Positions 1,002-20,135 of a stretch of DNA of 64,000 nucleotides are shown here, piece after piece (the first letter of the stretch is position 1; each line of letters opens with the position of its first letter). The notes beneath the pieces are model-generated. The model was not told the origin of the DNA. It made no database searches and saw nothing but the letters and a program-made list of their open reading frames with translations. Source of the stretch: Neoroseomonas alkaliterrae (GTDB lineage Bacteria; Pseudomonadota; Alphaproteobacteria; Acetobacterales; Acetobacteraceae); NCBI RefSeq assembly GCF_014199195.1, contig NZ_JACIJE010000003.1, forward strand, positions 310,001-374,000. Direction: 5' to 3'. The position numbers and the translations under genes were made by a program.

Positions 1002-2297
1002 GTGCACGTGGTCCTGGACGTGTCCCGGTTCCTCGCCTGCGCGCGCCGTCGCGCGCCATCGGGCATCGACCGCGTCGAGGCCGCCTATGTCGCCCGATGG
1101 CTCGCCGCGCCGGCCGCTTCCGTGACCTTCTGCGCCCGCGCGCCCTGGGGCGGCTATGCCGCCGTGCCGCGCGGCATGGTGGCCGATGCGGCCGCCGCGC
1201 TGGCCGCCGCCTGGGCCGGCGGGACCGGGGCCGAGGCCGCGCGCCGCGCCGCGCTGCGCATCGGCCGGCTGTCCGACCTCCGCCTCGCCGTCGGCCGCGG
1301 CCGGCAGCGGCTGCGCGAGGTGCTGGCGCGCGAAGGCCGCGCGCTGTTCCTGCTCGTCTCGCACCGGCTGATGGAAAGGCCCGAGCCGATCGCGGCACTT
1401 CGCGCCGCGGGCGCGGCCTTCGTCCCGCTCGTCCACGACCTGATCCCGGTGACGCATCCCGAATACGCGCGTCCCGGCGTGGCGATGCAGCACCTGCGGC
1501 GGCTCGACACCGTGGCCTCCATGGCCGATGGCGTGATCGTGAACTCGGCCGCGACGGCCGCGGTGCTGCGCCCGCATCTCGTCGCGCAGGACGGCGCGCC
1601 GCCGCTCGTCGTCGCGCCCCTCGGCATCGAGCTCGCCGATGCGCCGGCGGGCCGCCGTCCCCTGCCCACCGATCCCTACTTCGTCGCCATCGGCACCATC
1701 GAGCCGCGCAAGAACCACCTGCTGCTGCTCCATCTCTGGCGCGACTTCGCCGCGCGCTGGGGGCCCGCGGCGCCGCGCCTGGTGCTGGTCGGCCGCCGCG
1801 GGTGGGAGAACGAGAACGTCGTGGACCTGCTCGAACGCTGCGCCCTGCTGCGCGGCCTCGTCACCGAGGCCGGCGCGCTGCCGGATGCGGATGTCGCGGC
1901 ACTGCTGCGCGGCGCCCGCGCGCTGCTCTTCCCCTCCTTCGCCGAGGGCTACGGCCTGCCGCTCGCCGAGGCGCTGGCCTGCGGCACGCCCGCCATCTGC
2001 TCGGACCTGCCGGCGCTGCGCGAGGTCGGCGGCCAGGTGCCGGAATACCTCGACCCGGTGGATGGCGCGGGCTGGCGGCGGATGATCCTCGACTACGCCG
2101 CGCCGGAGAGCCGCAACCGCGCCGCGCAGATCGCGCGCCTGCGCGGCTGGTCCGCGCCGCGCTGGGATGCGCATTTCGCGGCGGTGGACGGGCTGCTGGC
2201 CAGGGTCGCCGCGCGCCACCGCGCCGCAGCGCCCGCCGAGAACCCGCCCCTCTCCGCCGCGGCCGTCCTGGCCGATGCGCGGGAGGGCCTGCGCTGA
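1002..2297 (+). CDS. GT4-family (GT-B fold) capsule glycosyltransferase
   Basis: A 431-residue retaining glycosyltransferase with a group 1 catalytic half: AIGTIEPRKNHLLLL (about residues 228-242) is the nucleotide-sugar site after the linker, and FPSFAEGYGLPLAEALACG (about 309-327) contains the E-x7-E motif typical of GT4 enzymes. The N terminus VVLDVSRFLACARR...SGIDRVE resembles transferases of capsule loci. The GTG start follows AGGAGG by about a dozen bases and keeps the first beta strand. It is the first gene of a plus-strand set with the PKS and oxoamine synthase, so it probably adds a sugar to the capsule chain or its lipid-linked primer. Donor and acceptor are unknown. Confidence 0.85.
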   Translation: MHVVLDVSRFLACARRRAPSGIDRVEAAYVARWLAAPAASVTFCARAPWGGYAAVPRGMVADAAAALAAAWAGGTGAEAARRAALRIGRLSDLRLAVGRGRQRLREVLAREGRALFLLVSHRLMERPEPIAALRAAGAAFVPLVHDLIPVTHPEYARPGVAMQHLRRLDTVASMADGVIVNSAATAAVLRPHLVAQDGAPPLVVAPLGIELADAPAGRRPLPTDPYFVAIGTIEPRKNHLLLLHLWRDFAARWGPAAPRLVLVGRRGWENENVVDLLERCALLRGLVTEAGALPDADVAALLRGARALLFPSFAEGYGLPLAEALACGTPAICSDLPALREVGGQVPEYLDPVDGAGWRRMILDYAAPESRNRAAQIARLRGWSAPRWDAHFAAVDGLLARVAARHRAAAPAENPPLSAAAVLADAREGLR

Positions 2298-2328
2298 TGC
2301 GCCGGCAGGCCGGGGGCGCCGAACGCCG

Positions 2329-18313: not shown

Positions 18314-20135
18314 CTTCCGGCGCGTGGTCGCGCTGGCCGGGGCGATGCTGCTGCTGGCCGCGGGCGGTGCGCTGGCGCAGGCCAATCGCGGGGGGCTGCC
18401 GCCGGGGATCGGCGGCGTGCCGGGCGGGCTGCCCGGCTTCACCAGCGCCCCGCCGGGCCCCGGCACAATGGGCGGCGCGCCGCCCGTGGGCACGCCCGCG
18501 ACGCAGCCGCCGCCGGTCTTCGACCGCCGCAGCCTCGCCGACATCCCGGGCCAGCAGCGCGGGATCGAGCGGCTGGGCAGCCCCACCCAGGCCGAGGGCG
18601 GGCCCTCCCTCGTCGCCCCGCTCGGCGACCAGGCGCGCGTCTCGGGGCCGGCGACGGCGGTGTTCGGCGCCTCGCTCTTCACCGGCCAGCCGCAATCCTC
18701 CTCCGATGCGCCCAACCCGAACTACGTGCTGGCGCCGGGGGACCGCGTCTCGGTGCGCGCCTGGGGGGCGGTGGAATCGGAGATCGTCGGCGTCATCGAC
18801 CCGGCGGGGAACCTGTTCCTGCCCAATATCGGGCCGATCCCGCTCGCCGGGGTGCGCGTGGGCGACCTGCAATCGGTGGTCGAGGCCGAGATCCGCAAGG
18901 TCTACACGGCGCAGGTGCAGGTCTATGCGACCACGCTCTCGACGCAGCGCATCGGCGTCTTCGTCACCGGCTTCGTCCGCCAGCCCGGGCGCTATGCGGG
19001 CGTGGCCTCGGATTCGATCCTCGATTTCCTGGTGCGCGCGGGCGGTGTGGATCCGGGCCGCGGCTCGCACCGGGAGATCACGCTGCGCCGGGGCAATGCG
19101 ACCGTCGCCTCGGTGGACCTCTACCGCTTCCTCCTCGACGGCACGCTGCCGCAGCTCCGCCTGCAGGAGGGCGACACCATCGTGGTCGGGCGCCAGCGCG
19201 CCATGGTCGGCGCCGACGGTGCGGTACGGAACAACTACCTGTTCGAGAGCACCTCCCGCGCCTCGCTGACCGGGCGCGAGCTGATCGAGCTCGCCCGCCC
19301 GCTGCCCGCCGCGACCAATGCCGTGGTGCGCGGCGTGCGCAACGCGCAGCCCTTCTCGCGCTACATGTCGGTGGCCGAGCTCGCCTCCCAGACGCTGCTC
19401 GACCAGGACACCGTCACCTTCGTCGCCGACGTCGCCGCGCGGACCATGCGCGTCACGGTCGAGGGCAGCCGCCTCTACCCCTCGGTGCTGGTGGCCGACC
19501 GCGACATGACGCTGTGCCAGATCCTCGACCACATCGCGGTGGACCCCGCGCTTGCGGACACCGAGGGCGTCTTCCTGCTCCGCCCCTCCCTCGCGCAGAG
19601 CCAGAAGCGCGCGATCGACGAGGCGCTCGACCGGCTCGAACGCCAGCTCTTCCTCGCCCCGGCGGCGACCACGCGGGTGGCCGATGCGCGTGCGCAGGAA
19701 GCGCAGATGATCACGCAGTACATCTCGCGCGCCCGCCGCACCCAGCCCGAGGGCCGGCTCGTGGTGATGGGCCCCGATGGCCGCTGCAGCCCGCTCAGGC
19801 TCGAGAACGGGGACATCATCGTCATCCCCGAACGCTCGCAGACCGTCTTCGTGCAGGGCGAGGTGAACTTCCCGCAGGCCGTGGTCTGGCGTGAGGGCTG
19901 GTCCGCCGCCCAGTTCATCGAGGCCGCGGGCGGCCTGACCCCGCGCGGGCGGATGTCCACGCTGATGCTGCGCCGCCCCTCGGGGCAGGCCATCCTCAAC
20001 CCGCAGCAGGCGCCGCGCCCCGGCGACGAGCTGATCGTGCTGCCCTATCTCGACCCGAAGGTCTGGCAGTTCGCGACCGACCTCGTGACCGCGCTGTTCC
20101 AGGTCGCCCTCGCCGCCCGCGTGTTCCGGGACTGA
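18303..20135 (+). CDS. kpsD: Polysaccharide export outer-membrane protein KpsD
   Basis: 610 residues. An N-terminal signal peptide (LAGAMLLLAAGGALAQA) is followed by a Gly/Pro-rich low-complexity linker to about residue 135. Then comes the polysaccharide export domain (YVLAPGDRVSVRAWGAVES onward) and several SLBB-like repeats. Length and lack of a lipobox fit KpsD rather than the shorter lipoprotein Wza. It would form the periplasmic/outer-membrane conduit for capsule. ATG 18303 overlaps the kpsE end. The phosphoesterase gene starts 4 bp after its stop, so transcription likely continues into it. Confidence 0.92.
   Translation: MRPDFRRVVALAGAMLLLAAGGALAQANRGGLPPGIGGVPGGLPGFTSAPPGPGTMGGAPPVGTPATQPPPVFDRRSLADIPGQQRGIERLGSPTQAEGGPSLVAPLGDQARVSGPATAVFGASLFTGQPQSSSDAPNPNYVLAPGDRVSVRAWGAVESEIVGVIDPAGNLFLPNIGPIPLAGVRVGDLQSVVEAEIRKVYTAQVQVYATTLSTQRIGVFVTGFVRQPGRYAGVASDSILDFLVRAGGVDPGRGSHREITLRRGNATVASVDLYRFLLDGTLPQLRLQEGDTIVVGRQRAMVGADGAVRNNYLFESTSRASLTGRELIELARPLPAATNAVVRGVRNAQPFSRYMSVAELASQTLLDQDTVTFVADVAARTMRVTVEGSRLYPSVLVADRDMTLCQILDHIAVDPALADTEGVFLLRPSLAQSQKRAIDEALDRLERQLFLAPAATTRVADARAQEAQMITQYISRARRTQPEGRLVVMGPDGRCSPLRLENGDIIVIPERSQTVFVQGEVNFPQAVVWREGWSAAQFIEAAGGLTPRGRMSTLMLRRPSGQAILNPQQAPRPGDELIVLPYLDPKVWQFATDLVTALFQVALAARVFRD

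What the first reader, a model, noticed from the sequence alone, without database searches (positions are those of the whole stretch)
1002..20135. Capsule locus with a dedicated PKS plus oxoamine synthase lipid set
One locus holds a fully reducing PKS without thioesterase, an overlapping alpha-oxoamine synthase, a formyltransferase-fold protein, an LtaS-like membrane enzyme, an SDR, kpsS and kpsMTED. The set matches rkpA/G/H/I/J and wcbO-T as I recall them. The chemistry suggested is acyl-ACP plus amino acid to a 3-keto-2-amino lipid, then ketoreduction and possible N-formylation and polar-head transfer: a sphingoid-like capsule anchor. The structure of such an anchor is, to my knowledge, not well established.
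Basis: partly seen in the sequence, partly recalled or inferred. Interest (0 to 1): 0.75.

Follow-up and report, generated by a model that had tools for sequence, protein, structure and literature searches.

The report
Capsule lipid-anchor locus, partly decayed
This stretch holds a gene set that probably builds a sphingolipid-like anchor for a bacterial surface capsule, and in this strain the genes that should join the anchor to the sugar chain have been deleted or cut short, which links two separate research fields and makes an old question testable.

Summary
The gene set is real: PKS (KS-AT-DH-ER-KR-ACP, no thioesterase), an overlapping oxoamine synthase (AOS), N-formyltransferase, LtaS-like enzyme, SDR and kpsMTED. 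One correction matters. kpsS is only a 3' remnant, kpsC is gone, and about 2.7 kb has been replaced by about 950 bp of lower-GC DNA; nine close relatives carry full kpsS-kpsC there. This strain's capsule linker is therefore probably broken, while the lipid genes stay open.

The rkp-1 match holds for S. meliloti; the wcb match holds by gene order in Burkholderia-group loci. The AOS is not BioF: the genome has no bioB, and the AOS falls in one supported clade with RkpG and Pseudomonas homologues. A Pseudomonas PKS+AOS pair (SgaAB) was shown in 2025 to make very-long-chain sphinganines, alongside phosphoglycerol-sphingolipids; that paper never mentions capsules. The LtaS-like enzyme's nearest solved relatives are phosphoglycerol transferases (GacH, LtaP, LtaS). 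It co-occurs with this AOS and with KpsS across Pseudomonadota.

Best reading: the module makes a sphingoid-phosphoglycerol, a mimic of lyso-phosphatidylglycerol, the known acceptor of the capsule's Kdo linker. Sphingoid chemistry is well supported by homology. The anchor role is inference and faces a membrane-sidedness problem.

The parts
1002..2297 (+). GT4-type glycosyltransferase, start of the co-directional run
   Evidence: Pfam Glycos_transf_1 62.7 bits; same position upstream of the PKS in relatives
2329..9504 (+). Iterative-type fully reducing PKS (RkpA/WcbR-like): KS-AT-DH-degenerate MT-ER-KR-ACP, no TE
   Evidence: Pfam domains; motifs TACSSSL, EAHGTGT, KTNVGHLE, GHSVGE, malonyl-type YAFH, HRLFGEAVLP, GGAGGVG, GLDSL
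9501..10814 (+). Alpha-oxoamine synthase (RkpG-like; same clade as Pseudomonas and Burkholderia PKS-linked AOS)
   Evidence: Overlaps PKS by 4 nt; catalytic Lys in TLSK 277, DEAH 245; tree; best solved relative of the family is serine palmitoyltransferase
10826..11617 (+). N-formyltransferase-fold protein (start codon uncertain)
   Evidence: Formyl_trans_N 76 bits; catalytic N134, H136, D172 invariant; fold model pLDDT 90.7 and PDB matches
11644..13035 (-). LtaS/GacH-like phosphoglycerol transferase candidate, 5 TM helices plus catalytic domain (RkpI-like)
   Evidence: Sulfatase Pfam; E233, T272, R331, H389, D430, H431 invariant in 30 homologues; GacH, LtaP, LtaS best hits
13032..13811 (-). 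SDR oxidoreductase, candidate 3-ketosphinganine reductase (RkpH/SgaC position; frame open to 13874)
   Evidence: adh_short 113 bits; GASRGLG and YAASK motifs
13816..14542 (-). kpsS remnant: C-terminal part only (ORF 13816-14388), N-terminal part lost
   Evidence: PF05159 aligns from 79/310 and meets a stop; homology to relatives ends at 14531-14542
14543..15494 (.). Replacement DNA, ~38-65% GC against ~74% around it; stands where relatives hold the rest of kpsS, all of kpsC and the start of a lipoprotein gene
   Evidence: Breakpoints and GC; single copy in genome; no Pfam hit to its longest minus-strand ORF; no plasmid hit
15507..15708 (+). 3' remnant of the small lipoprotein-like gene that precedes kpsM in relatives
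   Evidence: Reading frames against L035 16300-16696
15719..16519 (+). kpsM, ABC transporter permease
   Evidence: NF050053 KpsM 98 bits
16525..17160 (+). kpsT, ABC transporter ATPase
   Evidence: ABC_tran; 77-91% identity to relatives
17156..18313 (+). kpsE, polysaccharide co-polymerase (start uncertain)
   Evidence: TIGR01010 BexC_CtrB_KpsE 256 bits
18303..20135 (+). kpsD, outer-membrane polysaccharide export protein
   Evidence: polysaccharide export protein models, up to 60 bits; aligned to relatives

Best explanation
The locus descends from an rkp-1/wcb-type capsule locus whose lipid module makes a phosphoglycerol-headed sphingoid lipid. Proposed steps: (1) the PKS builds a long saturated acyl chain on its ACP; with no thioesterase, (2) the AOS releases it by decarboxylative condensation with an amino acid, most likely serine, giving a 3-keto-sphinganine; (3) the SDR reduces the ketone; (4) the LtaS-like enzyme moves glycerol-phosphate from phosphatidylglycerol to the C1 hydroxyl; (5) the amine is optionally modified, here by N-formylation. 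The product resembles lyso-phosphatidylglycerol, the E. coli lipid whose glycerol carries the first Kdo, so in intact relatives (6) KpsS and KpsC would build the Kdo linker on it and KpsMTED would export the capsule. In this strain kpsC is deleted and kpsS cut short, so step 6 is probably lost and any lipid made would stay a free membrane lipid. Shown here by sequence: gene content, catalytic residues, homology, co-occurrence, and the kpsS/kpsC lesion. Shown by others for a homologous pair: steps 1-2, presumptively 3. Inferred: steps 4-6.
For: Steps 1-2: Pseudomonas fluorescens SgaA (PKS) and SgaB (AOS, serine-specific) are needed for C24-28 sphinganines, the strain also makes lipids assigned as phosphoglycerol-sphingolipids, and an SDR (SgaC) is implicated (PMC12134224). 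Window AOS lies with Pseudomonas, Burkholderia and RkpG homologues in one clade (100/98), apart from BioF, KBL, HemA and a Prevotella SPT-like row. AOS is fused to the PKS in Planktothrix and Streptomyces, arguing for direct ACP-to-AOS hand-off. No bioB, and the only other AOS is HemA. Step 4: nearest solved relatives are GacH, LtaP, LtaS by sequence and fold. Association: in 46 PKS+AOS loci with at least 9 kb each side, 39 have LtaS or kps genes. In 149 phylum genomes, AOS of >=57% identity co-occurs with LtaS 5/6 vs 0/143 (p=1e-8) and with KpsS/C 6/6 vs 15/143 (p=4e-6), even where the loci are unlinked. In Acidisoma, AOS, SDR, LtaS and KpsS/C sit together with no PKS annotated or detected. 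SgaB-to-SgaC locus-tag spacing (25) equals that in the Pseudomonas plasmid locus, where the genes between are PhyH, KpsC-like, GNAT and LtaS. Acceptor: (lyso-)PG carries Kdo in E. coli (PMC7694667, PMC11041684).
Against: The LtaS-like catalytic domain should face the periplasm (5 TM helices) while KpsS/KpsC act in the cytoplasm, so the lipid would have to flip back. No structure of a PKS-type capsule anchor was readable; S. meliloti 1021 capsule is titled as having a 'phospholipid anchor' (Fraysse 2005, title only), and rkp-1 is titled as needed for 'secretion' of poly-Kdo (Muller 2009, title only), which may mean chains can start without this lipid. LtaS is absent from some genus mates that keep AOS and KpsS (G002, G007, G008, G019) and was not detected in Roseibium/Stappia-type loci. 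AOS-PKS pairs of 51-52% identity occur with no capsule genes. GacH, the closest relative, decorates a polysaccharide, not a lipid (own knowledge). Donor amino acid, chain length and formyl acceptor were not measured.
Confidence: 0.6

Rival explanations
1. The sphingoid lipid is made, but the LtaS-like enzyme, like GacH, puts glycerol-phosphate on the exported polysaccharide; the anchor has some other head group or none.
For: GacH is the closest solved relative by sequence and fold; catalytic domain on the periplasmic side, where exported polysaccharide would be.
Against: LtaS-like gene tracks AOS in genomes even when unlinked; phosphoglycerol-sphingolipids are reported in a strain whose cluster probably contains this gene (PMC12134224).
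Confidence: 0.15
2. Anchor exchange: capsule starts in the cytoplasm on ordinary (lyso-)PG; after export the LtaS-like enzyme, which by nature cleaves PG at the phosphate, moves the whole capsule-Kdo-glycerol-phosphate from PG to the long-chain sphingoid in the periplasmic leaflet.
For: Fits LtaS chemistry and topology with no flipping; would fit rkp-1 being titled as needed for secretion rather than synthesis of poly-Kdo (Muller 2009, title only).
Against: No known LtaS relative uses a glycan-capped donor (own knowledge); free phosphoglycerol-sphingolipids in P. fluorescens are more simply explained by plain PG as donor.
Confidence: 0.1
3. The lipid has a capsule-independent role (free membrane or secreted sphingolipid) and its linkage to kps genes is incidental; that role is what survives in this strain.
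For: SgaAB lipids act as free molecules (PMC12134224); PKS-AOS is open here although kpsC and part of kpsS are gone; 51-52% PKS-AOS pairs occur without capsule genes.
Against: In the genus 16 of 17 genomes with AOS of >=72% identity have PF05159 and 0 of 4 without do; phylum-wide co-occurrence; AOS with LtaS and KpsS/C, no PKS detected, in Acidisoma.
Confidence: 0.15
4. The AOS uses another amino acid (alanine, glycine, cysteate), so the product is a different 2-amino-3-keto lipid.
For: AOS members differ in amino acid; all NCBIfam specificity models score below cut-off; a cysteate acyltransferase is among the solved relatives.
Against: Clade-mates include Pseudomonas loci of the SgaB type, and SgaB is virtually exclusive for serine (PMC12134224); SPT is the best solved relative of the family profile, though by a small margin over KBL.
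Confidence: 0.1
5. The kpsS/kpsC lesion is an assembly error and the strain has an intact locus.
For: Only one assembly; replacement DNA looks foreign and partly resembles sequence near mobile-element-like frames in a genus mate.
Against: Locus lies inside a 465 kb contig of a genome rated 100% complete, 0.08% contamination; no kpsC elsewhere; no repeat across the junctions.
Confidence: 0.08

Closest known systems
Sinorhizobium meliloti rkp-1 region (rkpA, G, H, I, J)
   Same: PKS, AOS, SDR, LtaS-like and KpsS homologues in one run; window proteins match them at 44% (PKS KS-AT part), 53% (AOS), 32% (LtaS-like) and 49% (KpsS C-terminal part); SDR identified by annotation and profile only
   Different: No formyltransferase detected there; KpsS intact there, truncated here; order and strands differ
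Burkholderia-type loci (wcb-like; Caballeronia p2 as the test case)
   Same: SDR-LtaS-PKS-AOS plus kps transporter genes together; LtaS-PKS-LpxC-like-AOS in Burkholderia lata, B. singularis and others
   Different: An LpxC-like deacetylase sits between PKS and AOS instead of a formyltransferase after the AOS
Pseudomonas fluorescens SgaAB(C) sphingolipid cluster (PMC12134224)
   Same: Fully reducing PKS followed by an AOS of the same clade, with an SDR; shown to make sphinganines, with phosphoglycerol-sphingolipids also found
   Different: Authors treat it as a secondary-metabolite cluster and do not mention capsule; SgaA/B sequences themselves could not be fetched here
E. coli group 2 capsule (KpsS/KpsC on lyso-PG)
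   Same: KpsMTED export and KpsS family
   Different: Uses ordinary (lyso-)PG and has no PKS/AOS/LtaS set; the window lacks a working KpsS and any KpsC
GacH / LtaP / LtaS phosphoglycerol transferases
   Same: Fold and catalytic residues
   Different: 14-18% identity to solved structures; acceptor proposed here is a sphingoid base, untested

Membership tests
rkp-1/wcb-type (PKS-dependent) group 2 capsule locus | RkpA-type fully reducing PKS without TE next to an AOS | tested here: met
rkp-1/wcb-type (PKS-dependent) group 2 capsule locus | SDR (RkpH-type) and LtaS-like protein (RkpI-type) | tested here: met
rkp-1/wcb-type (PKS-dependent) group 2 capsule locus | Intact KpsS (RkpJ) and KpsC for the Kdo linker | tested here: not met
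   kpsS truncated, kpsC deleted; so filed only as a decayed derivative by descent, not as a working member
rkp-1/wcb-type (PKS-dependent) group 2 capsule locus | KpsMTED-type export genes | tested here: met
rkp-1/wcb-type (PKS-dependent) group 2 capsule locus | Capsule made and lipid-anchored | not testable with these tools
   Needs capsule chemistry
SgaAB-type PKS sphingolipid cluster | AOS in the same clade as Pseudomonas PKS-linked AOS | tested here: met
SgaAB-type PKS sphingolipid cluster | Serine-specific condensation giving long-chain sphinganine | not testable with these tools
   Needs enzyme assay and lipidomics
BioF (biotin pathway) | Scores over the BioF cut-off and lies in a genome with a biotin pathway | tested here: not met
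   357 bits vs cut-off 426, same as the HemA control; no bioB over cut-off
LtaS/GacH phosphoglycerol transferases | Alkaline-phosphatase-superfamily fold with catalytic Thr and metal ligands, membrane helices | tested here: met
LtaS/GacH phosphoglycerol transferases | Transfers glycerol-phosphate from PG | not testable with these tools
   Phosphoethanolamine transferases share the fold (EptA and MCR-1 also match) but none appears among the eight sequence-profile hits
Formyl_trans_N N-formyltransferases | Asn-His-Asp catalytic triad | tested here: met
Formyl_trans_N N-formyltransferases | Acceptor is a sphingoid amine | not testable with these tools
   Only indirect: the gene sits directly after the AOS in this genus, Cocleimonas, Marinobacterium and Sedimenticola, and near it in Methylobacterium

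The most novel reading that the evidence does not exclude
Sphingoid-phosphoglycerol is the general anchor of PKS-type (rkp/wcb/sga) capsules: an LtaS-family enzyme makes a sphingolipid mimic of lyso-PG, and a lineage-specific enzyme (formyltransferase, LpxC-type deacetylase, GNAT or CAT-like acyltransferase) tunes its amine. The sphingolipids reported from Pseudomonas would then be capsule-anchor precursors.
Probability: 0.42. Interest if true: 0.82.

Novelty: new variant of a known kind. Interest (0 to 1): 0.62.

Why it matters
The lipid made by the rkp-1/wcb PKS was, in the papers readable here, described only as a 'specific lipid carrier'. The 2025 Pseudomonas work found PKS-made sphingolipids without connecting them to capsules. 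Joining the two gives a concrete predicted anchor (a sphinganine-phosphoglycerol, +28 Da if formylated), names the likely head-group enzyme, and predicts that many bacteria not known as sphingolipid producers make such lipids to hold their capsules. This strain is a natural case in which the Kdo-linker genes are gone while the lipid genes remain, so the free lipid may be detectable in it.

Tried and rejected
BioF reading rejected: no bioB, and BioF score equal to the HemA control. NCBIfam models could not assign an AOS specificity (all below cut-off). No Rfam family in the window. The lower-GC insert gave no plasmid match, no second copy in the genome, no Pfam hit for its longest minus-strand ORF and no flanking repeats; only a weak 65-71% match to two places in one genus mate. 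The second PF05159 hit in the genome (C7, 40 bits, 380-aa frame) was considered as a relocated KpsC; the direct KpsC search found nothing. Clustering of unassigned neighbours gave no further conserved partner. KpsS intactness as first assumed was rejected. Papers that would settle the S. meliloti anchor (Fraysse 2005; Kiss 1997; Muller 2009) were not readable; Kiss 1997 and Muller 2009 were looked up and are not held.
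Full report
WHAT IS THERE. The window lies inside a 465 kb contig of a 4.24 Mb genome rated 100% complete. Tree neighbours of its oxoamine synthase (AOS) are named Acetobacteraceae, so the host is probably of that family (inference). Genes on the + strand: GT4 glycosyltransferase 1002-2297, PKS 2329-9504, AOS 9501-10814, formyltransferase-fold protein ~10826-11617. On the - strand: LtaS-like 11644-13035, SDR 13032-13811, kpsS remnant 13816-14542. On the + strand again: kpsM, kpsT, kpsE, kpsD 15719-20135. 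The PKS has KS, AT (malonyl-type motif), DH, a degenerate methyltransferase-like stretch, ER, KR and ACP with the key motifs, and no thioesterase.

THE CORRECTION. kpsS is not intact. PF05159 aligns only from position 79 of 310 and runs into a stop. DNA homology to nine relatives stops at 14531-14542 and restarts at 15494-15516. In the relatives the gap holds the rest of kpsS, all of kpsC and the start of a small lipoprotein-like gene, about 2.7 kb in L035. Here about 950 bp of lower-GC DNA stands in its place. A relative's KpsC finds nothing in the genome. KpsS and KpsC make the Kdo linker of group 2 capsules (PMC11041684), so this strain probably cannot join polysaccharide to lipid in that way. 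Another genus mate, G019, keeps kpsS and kpsMTED but shows no kpsC and no LtaS-like gene, so such decay is not unique.

CONSERVATION. In the close relatives with enough sequence the order is GT4-PKS-AOS-FT, then LtaS-SDR-KpsS-KpsC on the other strand, then KpsM-T-E-D; single genes are undetected in L037 (FT) and L038 (SDR). A second group of genus mates (AOS ~73%) keeps GT4-PKS-AOS in one place and kps genes elsewhere. In the genus, 16 of 17 genomes with AOS at 72% or more have PF05159; the four without such AOS have none (the exception is a 770-contig draft).

WIDER SURVEY. S. meliloti (on a replicon labelled pSymB) has PKS-AOS-SDR-LtaS-KpsS in a row, which tests and supports the rkp comparison. 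Caballeronia has SDR-LtaS-PKS-LpxC-like-AOS-kps; Burkholderia loci show LtaS-PKS-LpxC-like-AOS. A Pseudomonas plasmid has PKS-AOS-PhyH-KpsC-like-GNAT-LtaS-SDR-KpsS-KpsC. Acidisoma has AOS-SDR with LtaS and KpsS/KpsC but no PKS annotated or detected (5.5-7.8 kb of that stretch is unannotated). Of 46 named PKS+AOS loci with at least 9 kb on each side, 26 have LtaS, 24 a kps gene, 39 one or the other; of 19 related AOS without an adjacent PKS of this kind, none has LtaS (many of those contigs are short). In 149 phylum genomes besides this one, AOS of at least 57% identity (6 genomes) co-occurs with strong LtaS in 5 (0 of the other 143; Fisher p = 1e-8) and with KpsS/C in 6 (15 of 143; p = 4e-6), though in two genomes AOS and LtaS lie on different contigs. 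The tests treat genomes as independent; four of the six are one genus, so the p values are optimistic.

THE AOS. It lies with all PKS-linked AOS, including S. meliloti RkpG and two Pseudomonas loci, in a clade (100/98) that excludes E. coli BioF and KBL, the genome's own HemA and a Prevotella SPT-like sequence; the outgroups have long branches. The genome has no bioB over cut-off and no other AOS but HemA. The best solved relative of the family profile is serine palmitoyltransferase (335 bits), closely followed by KBL (324). PKS and AOS are one protein in Planktothrix and Streptomyces plasmids, so direct off-loading from the ACP is likely.

KNOWN CHEMISTRY. Peters et al. 2025 (PMC12134224) showed that P. 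fluorescens SgaA and SgaB are needed for C24-28 sphinganines, that SgaB is virtually exclusive for serine, and that the strain also has lipids 154 Da heavier, assigned as phosphoglycerol-sphingolipids. They propose an SDR, SgaC, for ketoreduction. The words capsule and LTA synthase do not occur in the paper. From SgaB to SgaC the locus tags step by 25; in the Pseudomonas plasmid locus AOS and SDR are also 25 apart, and the genes between are PhyH, KpsC-like, GNAT and LtaS. I infer, without having seen the MYb115 sequence, that the sga cluster is itself part of a capsule locus and that the LtaS-like gene makes the phosphoglycerol head group.

THE LtaS-LIKE ENZYME. The catalytic residues are invariant in 30 homologues. 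By sequence profile the solved relatives are GacH, LtaP and LtaS, all phosphoglycerol transferases, plus one uncharacterised protein. The AlphaFold model (pLDDT 88) has five membrane helices and a catalytic domain whose best fold match is GacH. Fold alone does not exclude phosphoethanolamine transfer (EptA and MCR-1 also match).

THE AMINE SLOT. Next to the AOS different lineages carry different enzymes of amine or acyl chemistry: a formyltransferase (this genus, Cocleimonas, Marinobacterium, Sedimenticola; in Methylobacterium nearby), an LpxC-type deacetylase (Burkholderiaceae), a GNAT acetyltransferase (Pseudomonas, a few genes away) or a CAT-like acyltransferase (Chitinilyticum). This suggests a head-group amine tuned by lineage, but no substrate is known. 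The formyltransferase keeps N134, H136, D172. Its N-terminal part contains a hydrophobic helix (about residues 53-69) in the stretch that the solved family members do not match (profile matches begin near residue 74), which could contact membrane; that is weak evidence.

MECHANISM AND ITS WEAK POINT. E. coli builds its Kdo linker on (lyso-)phosphatidylglycerol (PMC7694667, PMC11041684). Sphinganine-phosphoglycerol would present the same glycerol-phosphate on a single-chain lipid. The weak point is sidedness: the LtaS-like domain should face the periplasm, KpsS the cytoplasm. Either the lipid flips back, or the enzyme acts after export by swapping anchors, listed as a rival. The readable rhizobial review says rkp-1 products make a 'specific lipid carrier' (PMC4881576); S. 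meliloti 1021 capsule is reported, by title, to have a phospholipid anchor. Neither settles the structure.

VERDICT. The locus is a decayed derivative of a known kind, with a formyltransferase in a variable slot. Its main value is that it ties PKS sphingolipids, an LtaS-family enzyme and capsule anchoring into one testable proposal.

Noticed in passing
window 42647-47155 (-): A 1502-aa protein matches PADLOC candidate defence family PDC-S37 over its full length (1471 bits) and Hhe (598 bits), so a single-gene anti-phage defence candidate.
   Followed up: partly
window ~15112-15452 (inside the replacement DNA): 65-71% similar to two places in genus mate G003, one near its contig start and one close to frames that read like a tyrosine recombinase and a transposase (frames judged by eye only); suggests mobile-element involvement in the kpsC/kpsS loss.
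   Followed up: partly
L064 5560-13158; L065 6311-11134: AOS fused to the C-terminus of a PKS in Planktothrix and Streptomyces plasmids, without capsule genes.
   Followed up: partly
L050, L051 (genus mates) and G070: A 51-52% identical AOS, with a PKS and an SDR-like frame in L050/L051, and no LtaS or kps genes in these genomes where both were searched: a possible capsule-independent branch.
   Followed up: no
L035 16300-16696: Small lipoprotein-like gene between kpsC and kpsM in a relative, truncated in the window (15507-15708); function unknown.
   Followed up: no
L121, L124, L133, L134: Roseibium/Stappia-type loci carry two KpsS homologues plus KpsC beside PKS-AOS and no detected LtaS.
   Followed up: no
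L055 8455-9768 (genome contig C5): Frame next to hemA reads like a magnesium-chelatase BchI, hinting at bacteriochlorophyll genes (read from the sequence, not searched).
   Followed up: no
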